Source: Candidatus Dormiibacterota bacterium (lineage in GTDB: Bacteria; Chloroflexota; Dormibacteria; UBA8260; Bog-877). From it: a DNA stretch of 7,017 nucleotides. The notes under the pieces are model-generated. The model was not told the origin of the DNA and searched no databases. It worked only from the letters and a program-made list of their open reading frames with translations. Position 1 is the first letter of the stretch. Every line of letters begins with the position of its first letter. Positions 1 to 7,017 of the stretch are shown in pieces. The stretch is from positions 1 through 7,017 of the forward strand of contig PLTL01000119.1 in assembly GCA_003164475.1 (NCBI GenBank), in the 5' to 3' direction. The translations under genes and the position numbers were made by a program.

Positions 1-2
1 CG

Positions 3-269
3 CGTCCCGTCGAGTGGGACGAGGTTGCCTTCGCTGAGTTGGAGCGCCTCGCTGCCGAGTTACCCCGTGCGGCCGCTCGTGCTCTGGTCGCGGCGGAGCG
101 GATGGGCGCGACCGGTTACGACGAAGGCCGCCCGACCCATGAGCCTTACGTCCGCTATCGCCCCCCGTACCAGCGCGGGGAACGCATCGGCATCTACTAC
201 ACGCTCACGCCGTGGGGGCTGCGGGTGGTCTGGGTCGTGGACGCCTGGCAGCTCCGGGAACTGCCCTAG
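3..269 (+). CDS. 3' end of a small protein, possibly RelE/ParE-like toxin family
   Basis: Open reading frame entering from the left edge and ending at a TAG (267-269); 88 codons are visible and the true start lies outside the window. The N-terminal visible part (PVEWDEVAFAELERLAAELP) followed by an Ala/Arg-rich helix resembles the two opening helices of RelE/ParE-type toxins. It is followed by a basic, Tyr-rich segment (YVRYRPPYQRGERIGIYY) and a final strand pair (LRVVWVVDAWQLREL), again as in a RelE fold. The TTG at 39 is unlikely to be the start because good coding character continues upstream of it. No antitoxin gene can be seen, since the upstream side is missing. Coding status is fairly secure. 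The family call is inference from the overall pattern only; no catalytic residue set can be confirmed. Confidence 0.55.
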   Translation, partial: RPVEWDEVAFAELERLAAELPRAAARALVAAERMGATGYDEGRPTHEPYVRYRPPYQRGERIGIYYTLTPWGLRVVWVVDAWQLRELP

Positions 270-452
270 CCGTCCGCTGCCATCGGACCTGGCGGCGGGG
301 CGGCGAGCGACTCCATGAGCGACAGCGTCCGGCTCTCAGCGCACGTCAGACCCTTCCGAGTCGCCCGCCCCAATGTTAACGCCCGTGAAGACCGGCAGGC
401 CGAGATTATCTCTATGGCCGCTGCTGTCGGTACGAGGCCCAGACTTGGCGGC

Positions 453-2924: not shown

Positions 2925-3091
2925 GCGCTGGAATAGGGACTCTGCCGTCACAGGTTGGAGTGCCCGTTGTCGCTGCGGCTGCGGGCGCACCCTCAGACGG
3001 TGGACCTGGGCAAAGCGAGATCCACCATCGCCGGACGAGGCGTAGACGTGGGTTGCCGTTGGCGAGGCGGTAGTGGCGCCTTTCGCCCCTG

Positions 3092-4117
3092 TTACAGCCC
3101 CAGCATCCCGGCGGCGTTCTCCTCGAAGAGGGTGCCCCGGCGGATGTAGCGGCGGAGCGTGGTGAGCGACCGGTGCCGGGTCTGGTTGGCGATCGCGCGC
3201 TCGGTGGCGCCGGCCTGGGCGGCGGCGGTGGCGAACCCGGCCCGCAGCGAGTGGCCGGAGAGGTCTGGGATCTTGAGGCCGGCGAGGCGGGCGGCTCGGA
3301 CGAGGATCCGGGCGACCGCGCGGTCGCTCATGCGCTCGGGGAGGAGGTGGTCGCGGCGATCCATGGCCCGGAACAGCGGGCCCGAGTCGATCTCGGCGAG
3401 GTGACGCCAGCGCTGGAGGGCGATCACCGGGTCGGTCTCCTGGTGGCTGCCCTTGGGGATGCCGATCTCCTGGCCCGCCGCCTCGGGGTCGGTCTTGCTC
3501 CGTCGGATGCGGAGCAGCAGGCCGCCGTCGACCTCGCGGACGTCGGAGCAGTCGAGGGCAGCGATCTCGGCCCGGCGCAGGGCGCCGGCGAAGCCGAGGA
3601 GGAGGACGCAATGGTCGCGGACGTTGCGGAAGCTCTCCTCCGGAGTGGCCGACACCATCTCGCGCAGCTGGGCGACGCTCAGCGGCGCCGCCTCGGTGCG
3701 GGGAGCGACGCCGAGCTTTCGGCGGATACCCCGCATGACCAGACGGACCTCGAGCTCCTGGGTGGGGGCCGGTCGGACCCCGCCCGCCTCGTGGGCGAGG
3801 GTGATCGCCGCCAGCTGGAGCTGGATCCAGGAGGGAGTGAGAAGCACGGGCTTCCCCTTCACTAGATGGGTGGTCTCGGCGAGGTCGCTGACGTAACGGG
3901 TGAGGGTGCGGGGGGTGGTGGGCAGGGCGGTGAGGTCGTGGATGGCGCACCACGACGTGAACTGTTCCCACGCCCGCTGGTACTTGGCCCGGGTGGACGC
4001 GGCGAGCGACGCCTCGAGATGGGCCTCGACCTGGACGTCGAGGGCCGCGAGCCGGGCGGAGGCGGTCTCGCGAGGGGCCGAGTCCGGCGCGATCACTCCA
4101 GTCGCGGCGTTTTCCAC
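3092..4117 (-). CDS. Tyrosine recombinase / phage-type integrase
   Basis: 341 residues, GTG start, ends LGL-stop. It should cut and rejoin DNA at two short core sites through a 3'-phosphotyrosine intermediate. The N-terminal SAM-like core-binding domain covers about residues 26-128 (TRAKYQRAWEQFTSWC, then RTLTRYVSDLA). The catalytic domain runs from about 143 to 335. All expected catalytic residues are present: Arg181 (GALRRAEI, the RxxE motif), Lys208 (RRSKTD beta-hairpin), His289 and Arg292 (SGHSLRAGFAT), His315 (TRHRSLTT) and nucleophile Tyr324 (LRRYIRRG), nine residues after His315 as in the family. Length is normal and the gene looks intact. It is divergent from the XRE-ScpB-like gene across 144 bp that contain an inverted repeat. 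No tRNA or dif-like site is visible next to it. The HSLRAGF motif is typical of integrases of genomic islands and plasmids, not of XerC/XerD. Confidence 0.95.
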   Translation of the reverse strand: MENAATGVIAPDSAPRETASARLAALDVQVEAHLEASLAASTRAKYQRAWEQFTSWCAIHDLTALPTTPRTLTRYVSDLAETTHLVKGKPVLLTPSWIQLQLAAITLAHEAGGVRPAPTQELEVRLVMRGIRRKLGVAPRTEAAPLSVAQLREMVSATPEESFRNVRDHCVLLLGFAGALRRAEIAALDCSDVREVDGGLLLRIRRSKTDPEAAGQEIGIPKGSHQETDPVIALQRWRHLAEIDSGPLFRAMDRRDHLLPERMSDRAVARILVRAARLAGLKIPDLSGHSLRAGFATAAAQAGATERAIANQTRHRSLTTLRRYIRRGTLFEENAAGMLGL

Positions 4118-4151
4118 GGTGAAATCAGCTTAACACCGTCCGCGTACCTAG

Positions 4152-4178
4152 TGTCCGGAAAGCTTCTCTTTCCGGACA
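4152..4178. repeat. Perfect 11-bp inverted repeat in the integrase/regulator intergenic region
   Basis: Arms TGTCCGGAAAG (4152-4162) and CTTTCCGGACA (4168-4178) with the 5-nt centre CTTCT. It lies 34 nt upstream of the integrase start and 83 nt upstream of the XRE-ScpB-like start. It could be an operator for the XRE domain. On the minus strand it would cover the -35 region of a weak integrase promoter (CGGACA, 18-19 nt, TTAAGCT). Alternatively it could be a recombinase core-type site: 9-13-bp inverted arms around a 5-8-nt centre is the normal shape. An RNA hairpin is a third option, less likely without a T-run. Confidence 0.7.
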
Positions 4179-4223
4179 TATGTGAACGCCTAATCTACCT
4201 GTTCACAGAGCGCCACACCCCTG

Positions 4224-4253
4224 CTGACGCAGAGGCGCGGAACCCGCTACGAT
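4224..4253 (+). promoter_or_regulatory. Promoter giving a probably leaderless XRE-ScpB-like mRNA
   Basis: A -35-like CTGACG (4224-4229) and a -10-like TACGAT (4248-4253) are separated by 18 nt. Transcription would begin near 4260-4262, that is, on or next to the GTG start codon at 4262. No Shine-Dalgarno precedes that codon, which fits a leaderless transcript, a common arrangement in high-GC Gram-positive and related lineages. Confidence 0.5.
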
Positions 4254-4261
4254 CCGTATTC

Positions 4262-5137
4262 GTGGATCGAACGGCCGTTCCGTCGGAGCAGGACCGCGAC
4301 GCCGAGATTGAACTCAGCGGCGTCGCCGTCGAGATCCGGCAGCGCCGCAAGCTGCTCGGCCTGAGCCAGGTACAGCTCGCCGAGGTGAGCCACGTCTCCC
4401 GGACGGTGATCAACAAGGTGGAGCAGGGGGCCCGGGTGCCATCCATCCGCACCTACGCGCGGCTGCGAGCCTCCCTGGGCCTGGAGGCGCCGCCGGCAGC
4501 ACTCATCCCCGCGCCGGTGCCTACGCGCCTGGACGGCGACCTGGTCGCCGCACTCTCCGCGGGGCTCCTGATGACGCGGGAGGTCAGCCTGGGTGAGCTC
4601 GCGTCGGCGCTCGATCTCGCCATCCCCGCGGTGCGGGAGAACCTCGATCGGGTCGCAGAGCGGCTGCACGGGGTCGGCTTCTCGCTCACCGAGGACGGTG
4701 GGACGGTGCGGCTCTGGCCCCTTGCGGGCGCGCCGAGCGAGGTGGTCCGGGCTCTCACGGTGACCGAGGAGGACGCCCAACCCTCCCCCGAGCAGGTCCA
4801 GATCCTCGGCCTGGTCGCCTATTTCGGCCAGATGACCCGGGCACTGATCGAGCACTTTCGGCGGGAGGACTCCGCCTCCCTTCTCGACCGGATGGTGAAG
4901 CGCGGCCTTCTCGCCAAGGTCCGCTCGGACCGTGGGGTGGGCAGCCCCAACATCTACCGGGTAACCGCGAAAGCGCTCCGGGCAGCTGGATACCCCACCG
5001 TCGAGGCGATGCGGGCGGTGATTGAAGCCAGTCTCAGCGCGGCCGAGCAGATGTCGCTTGCCAGCGAGCGCGAGCAGCAGGTGGAGGCGCTCGTCGGCGC
5101 GGGGAGTCGTGTCCCAGCGGAGCTTGCGAGACCTTGA
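4262..5137 (+). CDS. XRE helix-turn-helix fused to ScpB-like double winged-helix domain
   Basis: 291 residues. GTG start chosen because a promoter-like pair ends just before it and coding upstream would overlap the antisense integrase. Residues about 22-75 are an XRE/Cro-type helix-turn-helix (IRQRRKLLGLSQVQLAEVSH, then VSRTVINKVEQGARVPSIRTYARLRASLGL), the sequence-specific DNA-binding unit. Residues about 93-155 form a first winged helix (SLGELASALDLAIPAVRENL, wing TEDGGTVRLWPL). Residues about 172-247 form a second one: PSPEQVQILGLVAYFGQMTRALIE, then LLDRMVKRGLLAKV and GSPNIYRVTAKALRAAGY. Both match the order and signature turns of ScpB, the kleisin-associated subunit of the SMC condensin. 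ScpB itself has no XRE domain and is about 180-200 residues long. The tail (250-291) is an amphipathic helix. The stop overlaps the start of the next gene. Either an element-encoded regulator on a ScpB scaffold or a condensin-linked segregation factor is possible; the former is more likely beside an integrase. Confidence 0.85.
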   Translation: MDRTAVPSEQDRDAEIELSGVAVEIRQRRKLLGLSQVQLAEVSHVSRTVINKVEQGARVPSIRTYARLRASLGLEAPPAALIPAPVPTRLDGDLVAALSAGLLMTREVSLGELASALDLAIPAVRENLDRVAERLHGVGFSLTEDGGTVRLWPLAGAPSEVVRALTVTEEDAQPSPEQVQILGLVAYFGQMTRALIEHFRREDSASLLDRMVKRGLLAKVRSDRGVGSPNIYRVTAKALRAAGYPTVEAMRAVIEASLSAAEQMSLASEREQQVEALVGAGSRVPAELARP

Positions 5138-5349
5138 GTCAGAAGCAGGGGCACCGGGGCCAGGCGACGTCCGCCCCGTACCAGGCAGCAGTGGCGGCAG
5201 CCCAGAAGCGGCACCGGGAGTGGCGGCGAGGGCAGACCGCGCAGGACGTACTCCGCCGACTGCCGCCTGAGCTTGCGGATAAGGTCGTGGCCACGCCGAT
5301 CGACCCCTTCTACGACGACGAGAAGCTGGAGGGCTTCCTGAGCGACGTC
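5134..5349 (+). pseudogene. 5' part of an unknown gene coupled to the XRE-ScpB-like gene, cut by an IS3 remnant
   Basis: TTG start at 5134 overlaps the TGA of the upstream gene (TTGA), a typical translational-coupling overlap; the only upstream site is a modest GGAG about 18-20 nt away. About 72 native codons remain. They encode a basic helical region (YQAAVAAAQKRHREWRRG), a LPPELADKVV helix start and an acidic segment (DPFYDDEKLEGFLSD). From about 5348 the reading frame continues into antisense IS3-element sequence and would run to 5715, so the original C-terminus is lost. There is no domain I recognise. The coupling implies that its product worked with the XRE-ScpB-like protein. Confidence 0.55.
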
Positions 5350-5463
5350 GCTGATCTTGAGCACCTTGGCGACATCACCGACCGTCTTCCCCTCGGCGAT
5401 CAGCCGTTCCCCCTCCCGCAGCTTCCGGACGATCTGATCAGGCGTGTGCTTCCTGCCCTTCAT
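5350..5463 (-). pseudogene. N-terminal fragment of IS3-family transposase OrfA
   Basis: 38 codons from ATG (5463), beginning MKGRKHTPDQIVRKLREGER and continuing through GKTVGDVAKVLKIS. This is the first two-thirds of the OrfA helix-turn-helix that binds the IS ends. The full protein normally continues with an E-x-T-Y/F-x-x-W segment and a leucine zipper. Here the frame leaves the family right after KIS, where it enters the antisense of the neighbouring gene. The fragment is non-functional. Confidence 0.75.
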
Positions 5464-5533
5464 GGTTCCTCCCGGCCAGGCTGGCCGTGGTGGAACCCTC
5501 ATATCACCTGGACCATTTCTGGGGGTCAGGTCA
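5350..5533 (-). mobile_element. Left-end remnant of an IS3-family insertion sequence
   Basis: On the minus strand the sequence begins with an IS3-type terminus (TGACCTGACCCCC, 5533 down to 5521), followed by a short leader, a Shine-Dalgarno (GGGAGG) and the start of orfA at 5463. It stops matching a transposase around 5348-5350, so about 184 bp remain out of an expected 1.2-1.5 kb. No orfB, no frameshift window and no right terminus are in the window. The inner edge abuts the truncated gene that follows the XRE-ScpB-like gene. Confidence 0.7.
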
Positions 5534-5609
5534 GCCCCGTTCCAGTGGGACGCGGCCCCCGCGCACGGAGGTCTGGAAGGCCTGCGTCCGCCAAGTTGGA
5601 GGAGTCGGC

Positions 5610-6257
5610 ATGGCTAACACTAATGTCCCCCAGCGTGTTGACACGATTCTGGTCCGAGTCACACGCGGCGCCTACGAGCTTGTCTTTTCGGTTCCTCCGG
5701 GGGAGGTGCATGTAGTTCGGTGCCAAGACCAGCACCAGAGCGTTGTCGAGGTGGCGAGATTCGATGCCGAGAGGTATGCGACCCCCCACCCTGTTAAGCT
5801 CACATGCACGACCACCAGCATGTGGAGAGTGCCTGCCAAGCTTCAGACAGCGTTTGGGCAGCTCGAACGCGGCGCGTTGCCGGAGGGAAGTGCCTCTGAG
5901 GAGGACGTGCGCAACAGAGGATCGTCCTATAGCCTTCCATTCGATCAGTACTCGGACGAGCTGCAAGGGTACGTCAGTGAGATCCACGTAGCTCTTGACG
6001 GGTGCGCCGCACGGGTTTGGCGTCTACTACGCTGGCGAGTAGCGGCCGAAGCGTCCGACACACTGTTCCAAACCGTCCTGGCAAGCGAGTGGTCTGGAGA
6101 CGGCGGCGCAACCTGGTACCCGCTGGCGTACCCGCTCCACGTTCGAGGCCGCGCCTATGGTGTGCCAAGGTGTGAAGGTGCACGAAACTGGCACGATCAG
6201 CGGTCACCAGAACTGGCACTGGAACGAGCACGAAACTGGCAGGGCTCTTCCGCCTGA
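5610..6257 (+). CDS. Hypothetical protein, 3' end replaced by insertion-element sequence
   Basis: 215 codons. The ATG at 5610 is preceded by GGAGGAG (5598-5604) at 5 nt, a better start than the in-frame GTG-type codons upstream, which lie in the IS3 remnant. The first ~187 residues appear native: a beta-rich opening (VDTILVRVTRGAYELVFSVP), a Cys-containing strand (VHVVRCQDQ), a mixed middle, and a Trp/Arg-rich part (ARVWRLLRWRVAAEASDTLF) followed by SEWSGDGGATWYPLAYPLHV. From codon 188 onward the translation (CEGARNWHDQRSPELALERARNW) comes from the repeats of the adjoining element, so the native C-terminus is probably missing. There is no signal peptide, membrane segment or recognised domain. 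Composition is less GC-rich than the integrase and regulator genes, suggesting a different origin. Confidence 0.6.
   Translation: MANTNVPQRVDTILVRVTRGAYELVFSVPPGEVHVVRCQDQHQSVVEVARFDAERYATPHPVKLTCTTTSMWRVPAKLQTAFGQLERGALPEGSASEEDVRNRGSSYSLPFDQYSDELQGYVSEIHVALDGCAARVWRLLRWRVAAEASDTLFQTVLASEWSGDGGATWYPLAYPLHVRGRAYGVPRCEGARNWHDQRSPELALERARNWQGSSA
6171..6193 (+). repeat. Left 23-bp terminal inverted repeat
   Basis: Starts TGTGAAGGTGCACG and ends AACTGGCA; it is the exact reverse complement of 6394-6416. The match stops at the next base on both sides. This terminal copy is the longest form of the box that repeats at 6211 and 6234. Confidence 0.9.
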
Positions 6258-6393
6258 TCGGATTGCCTGGGCGTCAAGAGACCGGGTTGACCCCCGTCCC
6301 GATCTCAGCAGGAGCGACGTTCGAGGCGCTAGAGACTTTTGGCTCAGTGCCAGTTTGATGCCCGATTCTCTGCCAGTTTCGCGCTCGCTCTCC

Positions 6394-6416
6394 TGCCAGT
6401 TTCGTGCACCTTCACA
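6394..6416 (-). repeat. Right 23-bp terminal inverted repeat
   Basis: Exact reverse complement of the left terminus. It contains the GTG at 6404 that is the only in-frame start for the truncated XRE-ScpB-like gene to its right. Confidence 0.9.
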
Positions 6417-7017
6417 GCGAGCGCCGCCAGCTGCTCGGCCAGAGCCAGGTCCAGCTGAGCCAGAGCGCGAAGGTCTCTCGCACCGTCATCAACGAGATCG
6501 AGGCGGGCACTCGCTTTCCCTCGGTGCGTACCTACGCGAGACTGCGGGCGGCGCTGGGCCTGGAGCCACCGGCGGCGGCGATGATCCCCCAGCGACTTCC
6601 GCTCGAGCTCGACCCGGACCGGGTCACCGCGCTGTGCGCCGGCCTGCTCGCCCGCCATGAGGCCAGACTCGCCGACCTGGCCTCTGCCCTCGACATCGCC
6701 ATCCCGGCGGTCCGGGAGAACCTCGAGCGCGTGGCCGAGCGGCTGCGCCCGGTCGGATACACCCTCACCGACGACGGCGGCACCGTCCGGCTCTGGCCGC
6801 TGCCCGGCCCGCCCAGCGAGGTGGTCCGGTGCCTCAGCGCGGTGGAGGAGACGGTCCAGCCGTCGCCCGAGCAGGTGGGGATCCTCGGCATCGTCGCCTA
6901 CTTCGGACAGATCACCCGGACCCAGATCGAGGCTTTCCGCGGGGAGGGGGCCGGGGCGGTGAACAGCGCCTCGGTGCTCGACCGCATGGTCCGCCAGGGG
7001 CTGCTCGCCAAGGTCCG
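6404..7017 (+). CDS. Second XRE-ScpB-like gene, 5'-truncated and running off the right edge
   Basis: Native homology begins at 6419 (ERRQLLGQSQVQLS), two bases after the insertion-element boundary. The frame is open back to a TGA at 6356 and the only start codon is a GTG at 6404 inside the element's terminal repeat, with no Shine-Dalgarno. Domains follow the 4262-5137 gene: XRE helix-turn-helix (VSRTVINEIEAGTRFPSVRTYARLRAALGL), first winged helix (LASALDIAIPAVRENLERVAERL, wing TDDGGTVRLWPL) and second ScpB-like winged helix (PSPEQVGILGIVAYFGQITR, then VLDRMVRQGLLAKV). By hand count about 119 of 174 aligned residues (68%) are identical. It carries a five-residue insertion relative to the other copy near FRGEGAGAVNSAS. 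About 26 N-terminal residues are missing, including part of helix 1, so DNA binding is probably impaired. It is either a pseudogene or a shortened protein started from element DNA; the C-terminus lies outside the window. Confidence 0.75.
   Translation, partial: MHLHSERRQLLGQSQVQLSQSAKVSRTVINEIEAGTRFPSVRTYARLRAALGLEPPAAAMIPQRLPLELDPDRVTALCAGLLARHEARLADLASALDIAIPAVRENLERVAERLRPVGYTLTDDGGTVRLWPLPGPPSEVVRCLSAVEETVQPSPEQVGILGIVAYFGQITRTQIEAFRGEGAGAVNSASVLDRMVRQGLLAKV

What the first reader, a model, noticed from the sequence alone, without database searches (positions are those of the whole stretch)
4262..5137. XRE DNA-binding domain fused to a ScpB-like condensin-subunit fold
The C-terminal 200 residues follow the two-winged-helix order and signature turns of ScpB (LxIVAYxGxxTRxxIE then LLxRxLL, GxPxxYxxT). 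The N-terminus is an XRE helix-turn-helix, which chromosomal ScpB lacks. This would give sequence-specific targeting to a kleisin-binding fold. Next to an integrase, it could be an element-borne regulator, a recombination directionality or segregation factor, or a locus that recruits or antagonises host condensin.
Basis: partly seen in the sequence, partly recalled or inferred. Interest (0 to 1): 0.75.

Follow-up and report, generated by a model that had tools for sequence, protein, structure and literature searches.

The report
Condensin-like helper beside a DNA recombinase
In little-known soil bacteria, a protein built from a DNA-reading domain and a chromosome-condensing (ScpB) fold sits next to a DNA-cutting recombinase, with paired recognition sites between the two genes, and probably helps it separate joined DNA copies.

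Summary
In detail: window 4262-5137 encodes an XRE helix-turn-helix fused to a ScpB domain (SMC_ScpB 57.4 bits, cut-off 27.4; ScpB chains head the Foldseek lists for two predicted models). It forms its own clade, found in our scans only in the class of one Candidatus Dormiibacterota MAG (11 of 110 genomes), and is not the host's ScpB. Its recurrent neighbour is a tyrosine recombinase: 10 of 13 loci with a readable 5' side, against 0 of 74 canonical ScpB loci (59 distinct). Nine of the ten pairs diverge, mostly around strong inverted repeats; five relatives share GATA(A/G)-N7-(T/C)TATC. The window recombinase is homologous to the pWW0 recombinase that I take for TnpS of Tn4651 (28.7% over 310 aa), whose divergent helper is an unrelated KfrA_N/coiled-coil protein. 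A pair also sits inside TniA/TniB-type transposons, and two such transposons lie about 12 bp apart at the recombinase start, as 'res-site hunters' would; the window is the empty site. Best reading: a resolution module in which XRE-ScpB takes TnpT's helper part. Condensin recruitment or antagonism has no direct support. Activity was not tested.

The parts
3092..4117 (-). TnpS-related tyrosine recombinase, 341 aa; candidate catalytic residues by inspection R181 (in GALRRAE), K208 (RRSKTD), H289-x-x-R292, H315, Y324
   Evidence: PF00589 54.6 bits; 28.7% identity over 310 aa, 92 bits, to the pWW0 recombinase taken for TnpS; 43.6% to a plasmid integrase of Alicyclobacillus; motif positions, catalytic roles recalled
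4113..4119 (.). 7-bp target (CCGTGGA on the - strand) duplicated at both ends of the 11.7-kb transposon in relative L054; the window is the empty site
4114..4138 (.). Site 1: 25 bp identical in window and L001 although neighbouring bases differ; imperfect inverted repeat CGGTG..CACCG; proposed recombination core (weak as a palindrome)
4152..4178 (.). Site 2: perfect inverted repeat, 11-bp arms, 5-bp spacer; proposed helper-binding site
   Evidence: 0 of 400 dinucleotide shuffles as good; the repeat finder
4181..4207 (.). Site 3: TGTGAAC-N13-GTTCACA, a box like its right half also upstream of XRE-ScpB in L002, L048, L049, L058; proposed operator
4262..5137 (+). XRE-ScpB protein, 291 aa: XRE at 4334-4483 (aa 25-74), ScpB domain at 4571-5005 (aa 104-248)
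6419..7017 (+). Second XRE-ScpB copy (67% identical over 199 aa), 5' end lost at a repeat cluster, cut by the window end

Best explanation
The recombinase, the intergenic sites and XRE-ScpB form a site-specific resolution module. The TnpS-type recombinase binds an inverted-repeat core between the divergent genes and recombines two copies of it, resolving transposon cointegrates or replicon dimers. XRE-ScpB, probably a dimer or higher oligomer through its ScpB winged helices, binds the neighbouring inverted repeats, represses the divergent promoters and acts as the accessory protein that assembles the synapse, the part that TnpT plays for TnpS. Shown: domain make-up, repeated adjacency, divergence, palindromes, homology of the window-type recombinase to TnpS, presence of a pair inside a TniA/TniB-type transposon, two nearby transposon insertions at the recombinase start. 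Inferred: binding, oligomer state, resolution, repression.
For: Adjacency 10 of 13 XRE-ScpB loci against 0 of 74 canonical ScpB loci, 59 distinct. Intergenic palindromes: 0 of 400 shuffles as good in 7 of 12 sequences tested (window, L001, L050, L058, L053, L054b, L055; window/L001 and L053/L054b/L055 are close relatives). Core GATA(A/G)-N7-(T/C)TATC in 5 of 9 sequences tested (L002, L048, L049, L050, L058), at most 1 of 2000 shuffles each; 1 match in 256,575 background bases, which include L056, the same place as L002. TnpS homology of the window type. TnpS/TnpT layout: divergent genes with rst, two inverted-repeat pairs, between them (PMC7157771, passages). In L054 a TniA-like/AAA transposon carries its own recombinase/XRE-ScpB pair beside its tni-like genes and sits at the counterpart of window 4113-4119; in L083 a relative (82.1% nt; transposase 71% aa; recombinase part 92.7% nt) sits about 12 bp away in the same orientation. 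Res-site hunters prefer res sites beside a resolvase gene, in one orientation (PMC7765201, passages). Identities of XRE-ScpB and recombinase rise together over 36 locus pairs, Spearman 0.76, pairs not independent, some sequences partial. Recombinase relatives lie on circular plasmids, one of 4.6 kb.
Against: The helper pWW0 encodes beside TnpS does not match XRE-ScpB. The second recombinase type, the one inside the transposons, has no clear match to TnpS (44 aa, E 0.061), so the homology argument covers the window type only. Most related recombinases lack XRE-ScpB: 4 of 23 places have it nearby, one of them across the transposon, though several lie at contig ends. Three of 13 XRE-ScpB loci (L056, L057, L165) have no recombinase. 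The window's own site 1 does not fit the GATAA core. No transposase was recognised around the window pair apart from an IS3-like remnant. The L054 transposon duplicates 7 bp, not 5, and its transposase end faces the recombinase, whereas Tn5053 elements put IRo there (that IRo is the non-tni end is recalled). Only one end of the L083 insertion is visible, so independence of the two insertions rests on divergence.
Confidence: 0.5

Rival explanations
1. XRE-ScpB is only a transcription factor: an XRE autorepressor whose ScpB part serves for dimerisation and extra DNA contacts, controlling the divergent recombinase gene.
For: Divergent layout and palindromes between the genes; XRE fold close to control proteins such as C.AhdI and C.BclI; winged helix 2 also aligns with MarR-type regulators.
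Against: In L051 the C-terminal part of a recombinase is co-directional and its stop overlaps the XRE-ScpB start, so no shared divergent promoter there; an intact tandem winged-helix ScpB domain is more than a simple repressor needs (inference).
Confidence: 0.25
2. The pair belongs to an integrative element: Int integrates it and XRE-ScpB is the directionality factor/repressor.
For: L057 has an XRE-ScpB remnant about 200 bp downstream of a tRNA-Pro; XRE regulators beside integrases are common in integrative elements (recalled).
Against: Window and L054 share only the two genes and short flanks, 3009-5095, at the blastn threshold used, so no common cargo between these two; relatives of the window recombinase lie on plasmids, some of 4.6 and 9 kb. 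Att repeats were not searched for systematically.
Confidence: 0.13
3. XRE-ScpB targets or blocks host condensin: it binds ScpA and brings SMC to the element, or acts as a decoy.
For: Genuine ScpB fold matching ScpAB co-crystal chains; residues R193, R200, T235, G243 kept.
Against: Change at columns invariant or nearly so in 69 canonical domains: F at alignment column 40 absent, F238 to A/L, P251 to R, A178 to Q/H. No contact data were available. A putative ScpB does not guarantee a ScpA complex: six archaeal ScpA proteins do not bind theirs, there because ScpA lacks the binding segment (PMC7055376, abstract passage).
Confidence: 0.08

Closest known systems
TnpS/TnpT/rst resolution system of Tn4651 (Tn3 family)
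   Same: Homologous tyrosine recombinase, divergent helper gene, inverted-repeat pairs between them
   Different: Helper is XRE-ScpB, not KfrA_N plus coiled coil; no Tn3-type transposase recognised in the window
Tn5053/Tn402 res-site hunters (tniABQ-res-tniR)
   Same: TniA/TniB-type transposon carrying a recombinase module next to its transposition genes and inserted beside another recombinase gene
   Different: Tyrosine recombinase plus XRE-ScpB where Tn402 has tniR; 7-bp duplication; other end facing the target gene
ScpB of SMC-ScpAB
   Same: Pfam domain over cut-off; tandem winged-helix fold
   Different: XRE added, invariant columns changed, equivalog cut-off missed, a separate canonical ScpB in the same genome G001
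XerCD/dif-type sites
   Same: Core of ..ATAA-spacer-TTAT.. with variable spacer (dif recalled, not fetched)
   Different: Near-palindromic arms with 7-bp spacer; XerC and XerD models score only 35.2 and 33.8 bits with the window recombinase

Membership tests
ScpB (PF04079 / TIGR00281) | SMC_ScpB profile over curated cut-off | tested here: met
   57.4 bits against 27.4
ScpB (PF04079 / TIGR00281) | NCBIfam ScpB equivalog cut-off | tested here: not met
   26.2 bits against 89.2
ScpB (PF04079 / TIGR00281) | Tandem winged-helix ScpB fold | tested here: met
   Top nine Foldseek hits are ScpB for both models
ScpB (PF04079 / TIGR00281) | Residues invariant in canonical ScpB | tested here: not met
   Several changed; some fold residues kept
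ScpB (PF04079 / TIGR00281) | Binds kleisin ScpA | not testable with these tools
   No complex prediction or assay on hand
XRE regulators | HTH_3 domain over cut-off | tested here: met
   42.9 bits against 23
TnpS/TnpT resolution system | Tyrosine recombinase homologous to TnpS (window type) | tested here: met
   Window 28.7%/310 aa, 92 bits; L049 31.6%, 108 bits; profile of 12 recombinases 162 bits; second type E 0.061 only. TnpS identity in pWW0 is recalled
TnpS/TnpT resolution system | Divergent helper with inverted-repeat site between | tested here: met
TnpS/TnpT resolution system | Helper homologous to TnpT | tested here: not met
   pWW0 helper is KfrA_N 93 bits plus coiled-coil hits; no match to the XRE-ScpB profile at E 10
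TnpS/TnpT resolution system | Resolves cointegrates | not testable with these tools
   Needs a recombination assay
Tn402/Tn5053 res-site hunters (relatives L054, L083) | TniA (rve + Mu-transpos_C) and AAA partner | tested here: met
   L054: Mu-transpos_C 54.1 bits, AAA_22 55.2 bits; rve 31.3, under its cut-off 32.6
Tn402/Tn5053 res-site hunters (relatives L054, L083) | 5-bp target duplication | tested here: not met
   7 bp in L054; L083 not visible
Tn402/Tn5053 res-site hunters (relatives L054, L083) | tniQ and serine resolvase tniR | tested here: inconclusive
   Third gene has no Pfam hit; a tyrosine recombinase stands in the module's place

The most novel reading that the evidence does not exclude
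XRE-ScpB still binds the host kleisin ScpA, so that SMC-ScpAB is loaded at, or steered to, the resolution site and loop extrusion brings the two sites together: condensin used as the synapsis engine of a mobile recombinase.
Probability: 0.07. Interest if true: 0.92.

Novelty: new variant of a known kind. Interest (0 to 1): 0.6.

Why it matters
It shows a chromosome-condensation subunit fold taken over as the recurrent, DNA-binding partner of tyrosine recombinases, and suggests that the helper slot of TnpS-type systems is exchangeable (TnpT in Tn4651, XRE-ScpB here). It offers a testable case of whether ScpB folds can work in recombination synapses, and suggests that tyrosine-recombinase sites, not only serine-resolvase res sites, may draw tni-type transposons. 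In the held library (open-licence PMC papers only) the searches 'ScpB domain'+transposon, ScpB+tyrosine recombinase+XRE, and ScpB+paralog+mobile genetic element+recombinase gave no paper; a looser one listed 15 of 157 papers, none of the 15 holding ScpB.

Tried and rejected
Integron-like platform: the 11.7 kb between recombinase and XRE-ScpB in L054 first looked like inserted cassettes; terminal inverted repeats and a 7-bp duplication show a transposon. Vertical inheritance of one insertion in L054 and L083: judged unlikely from 82.1% nt in the transposon against 92.7% in the recombinase, not excluded.

Deciding whether the palindromes belong to recombinase or helper: 480 bp upstream of 14 recombinases without XRE-ScpB gave a GATAA-type site in 2 (L095, L096) and a palindrome of score 8 or more in 6; of 8 XRE-paired ones all list such a palindrome, but L049's lies 407 bp upstream, outside the intergenic space. 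This does not settle it.

Phage or plasmid origin of XRE-ScpB: no viral-contig hit, no plasmid hit, one weak ScpB-only phage hit. Sigma-70 promoter scan of 4060-4330: none. The archaeal ScpB paper was searched for ScpA-contact residues: none in the two passages shown. ScpB structures align with rmsd about 9-18 over the two winged helices, so their relative placement in the models is not trusted.

Limits and rows dropped: for the adjacency count I left out L054a (split by the transposon), L052, L162, L163, L164 and the second window copy (5' side not visible, or a fragment) and the duplicates L001, L002. The recombinase profile used there was built from 12 recombinases, among them six from XRE-ScpB loci; as a check it found all 7 plasmid stretches tried. 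Canonical loci were 2.0-3.6 kb long, the XRE-ScpB stretches 2-5 kb. In one search, 5 of 74 canonical loci gave no extracted domain; 69 remain, 55 distinct. The phylum scan scored only 6 candidates per genome, the class scan up to 22; the protein searches scored 7999 candidates each.

Full report
WHAT IS THERE. The ORF at 4262-5137 reads through 291 codons. It carries an XRE domain (HTH_3 42.9 bits) and an almost complete ScpB domain (PF04079 57.4 bits, cut-off 27.4, profile 9-155 of 160). ScpB structures are the top nine Foldseek matches of the predicted model and of a distant family member. The ScpB equivalog model is not satisfied (26.2 of 89.2 bits).

WHERE IT LIVES. The two genome-contig hits lie in one Candidatus Dormiibacterota MAG (a scan for close relatives). 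That genome (G001) holds one canonical ScpB (153.3 bits) and four XRE-ScpB genes. The protein database gave 77 relatives at E up to 1e-3 and 120 at E up to 1e-10 with a profile, 7999 candidates scored each time; the one that a source names by organism is Dormibacteraeota, and several JGI names read 'ScpB/XRE', so automatic annotation already sees the two domains. Over the class of G001, matches that include the XRE part occur in 11 of 110 genomes (G001, G072, G207, G210, G212, G213, G215, G217, G221, G232, G274; G207 only, the rest; G207, G212 and G213 are fragments). In 400 genomes drawn from the phylum, six candidates scored per genome, matches reaching into the XRE domain from its first half are in G001, G072, G210 and G274 only, all of that class. 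Plasmids gave none, viral contigs none, phages one weak ScpB-only hit. On a FastTree of 22 XRE-ScpB and 69 canonical ScpB domains (55 distinct) the XRE-ScpB side is exclusive, with modest support 0.635; some fold residues are kept and several canonical invariants changed.

THE PARTNER. Profile searches of 13 XRE-ScpB loci with a readable 5' side found a tyrosine recombinase in 10 (window, L048, L049, L050, L051, L053, L054b, L055, L058, L161), not in L056, L057, L165; the same test on 74 canonical ScpB loci (59 distinct) found none. L050 shows only the first 60 or so residues at a contig end. Nine of the ten are divergent; in L051 the C-terminal part of a recombinase lies upstream and co-directional. 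An eleventh pair, L054a, is split by a transposon. Two recombinase lineages are involved, the window type and a second type (L053, L054b, L055, L161) that shares only 25-29% identity with the window type. Identities of the two partners rise together (Spearman 0.76 over 36 non-independent pairs, some partial). Conversely, of 23 places in 17 of 110 genomes with a relative of the window recombinase, 4 have XRE-ScpB nearby, one of them across the transposon, so the recombinase also exists without it. In L048 the recombinase frame is broken.

THE SITES. Between the genes the window has a 25-bp block identical to L001 (4114-4138), an 11-5-11 perfect inverted repeat (4152-4178) and a 7-13-7 inverted repeat (4181-4207). 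Of 12 intergenic or upstream sequences tested, 7 have a best palindrome that none of 400 dinucleotide shuffles equals; in L002 3 of 400 do, L048 16, L049 198, L057 196, L161 (mostly masked) 400. GATA(A/G)-N7-(T/C)TATC stands in L002, L048, L049, L050 and L058, with differing spacers save that L002 and L058 share one, and not in window, L053, L054b, L055. Conserved arms around a variable spacer are what a tyrosine-recombinase core looks like (established knowledge). Recombinases without XRE-ScpB mostly lack such sites, so the palindromes may belong to the helper instead.

WHAT IT WORKS LIKE. [quoted passage not shown] I fetched pWW0; its record calls the divergent genes at 29463-30461 and 30642-31613 'DNA-binding protein' and 'site-specific integrase', and that these are TnpT and TnpS of Tn4651 is recalled. 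The window recombinase is homologous to this TnpS (28.7% over 310 aa, 92 bits), L049's more so (31.6%, 108 bits), whereas the second type has only a 44-aa match at E 0.061; the helper is KfrA_N plus coiled coil and does not match XRE-ScpB. Xer models score 34-35 bits with the window recombinase. Nearer relatives are integrases on circular plasmids, up to 43.6% identical (999 records, 40 listed), one on a 4.6-kb plasmid; none of the six neighbourhoods I read, five for the window type and one for the second, is annotated with ScpB. So the window recombinase is TnpS-related, but its helper is of another origin.

TRANSPOSONS. L054 carries an 11.7-kb element with TGTGA termini, a TniA-like transposase (Mu-transpos_C over, rve just under cut-off), an AAA ATPase, a third gene without Pfam match, an RHS protein and its own recombinase/XRE-ScpB pair. 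It lies in the counterpart of window 4113-4119, with CCGTGGA duplicated; the window is the uninterrupted form. L083, from another genome, has a related element (transposase 71% aa) whose end lies about 12 bp away beside the same recombinase, in the same orientation, and which also runs into a second-type recombinase (32 of 32 aa). L053 runs from its pair into the third transposon gene (43 of 52 aa). A third TniA relative, L105, shows no recombinase or XRE-ScpB in the 14 kb held. Nested insertion beside a recombinase gene is the habit of Tn5053/Tn402 res-site hunters, which use the target's resolvase (PMC7765201, passages). This is the best indirect sign that the intergenic region is a resolution site.

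VERDICT. A resolution module of TnpS type with an XRE-ScpB helper is the best-supported reading (0.5). A plain repressor (0.25), an integration factor (0.13) and a condensin-directed protein (0.08) remain. Steps shown: sequence, fold, adjacency, sites, insertions. Steps inferred: binding, oligomer state, recombination, regulation. Novel as a variant: a known kind of recombination system with a helper not found in the papers I could search.

Noticed in passing
window 6174-6416: Cluster of 14-20 bp repeats (gaaggtgcacgaaactggca and its inverse, two plus three copies) like the ends of a small mobile element; the 5' end of the second XRE-ScpB copy is missing at its edge. L056 1451-1476 shares one end.
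   Followed up: partly
L162 65-1189 (G210:C163): XRE-ScpB fragment runs in frame into RHS-like repeats (by eye); in L054 an RHS protein of 1795 aa is the neighbour of XRE-ScpB in the transposon.
   Followed up: no
window 1-310 and L084 5133-5444: A stretch 93.6% identical at DNA level in G214, holding a short ORF, on the same side of the recombinase but with different DNA between; the ORF has no Pfam match.
   Followed up: no
P0017 and P0075 (contigs of the same length, 35386), L086 1314-1901: P0075, an XRE-ScpB end fused to a PF14355 protein, resembles by eye an ORF beside a related recombinase in L086; that ORF itself has no Pfam match.
   Followed up: no
window 5344-5550: Start of an IS3-type OrfA on the minus strand (MKGRKHTPDQIVRKLREGERL), truncated; the family name is recalled.
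   Followed up: no
L165 2202-2930 (G221): A remote XRE-ScpB-like protein beside a phosphate-binding-protein-like gene (name by eye), with no recombinase.
   Followed up: no
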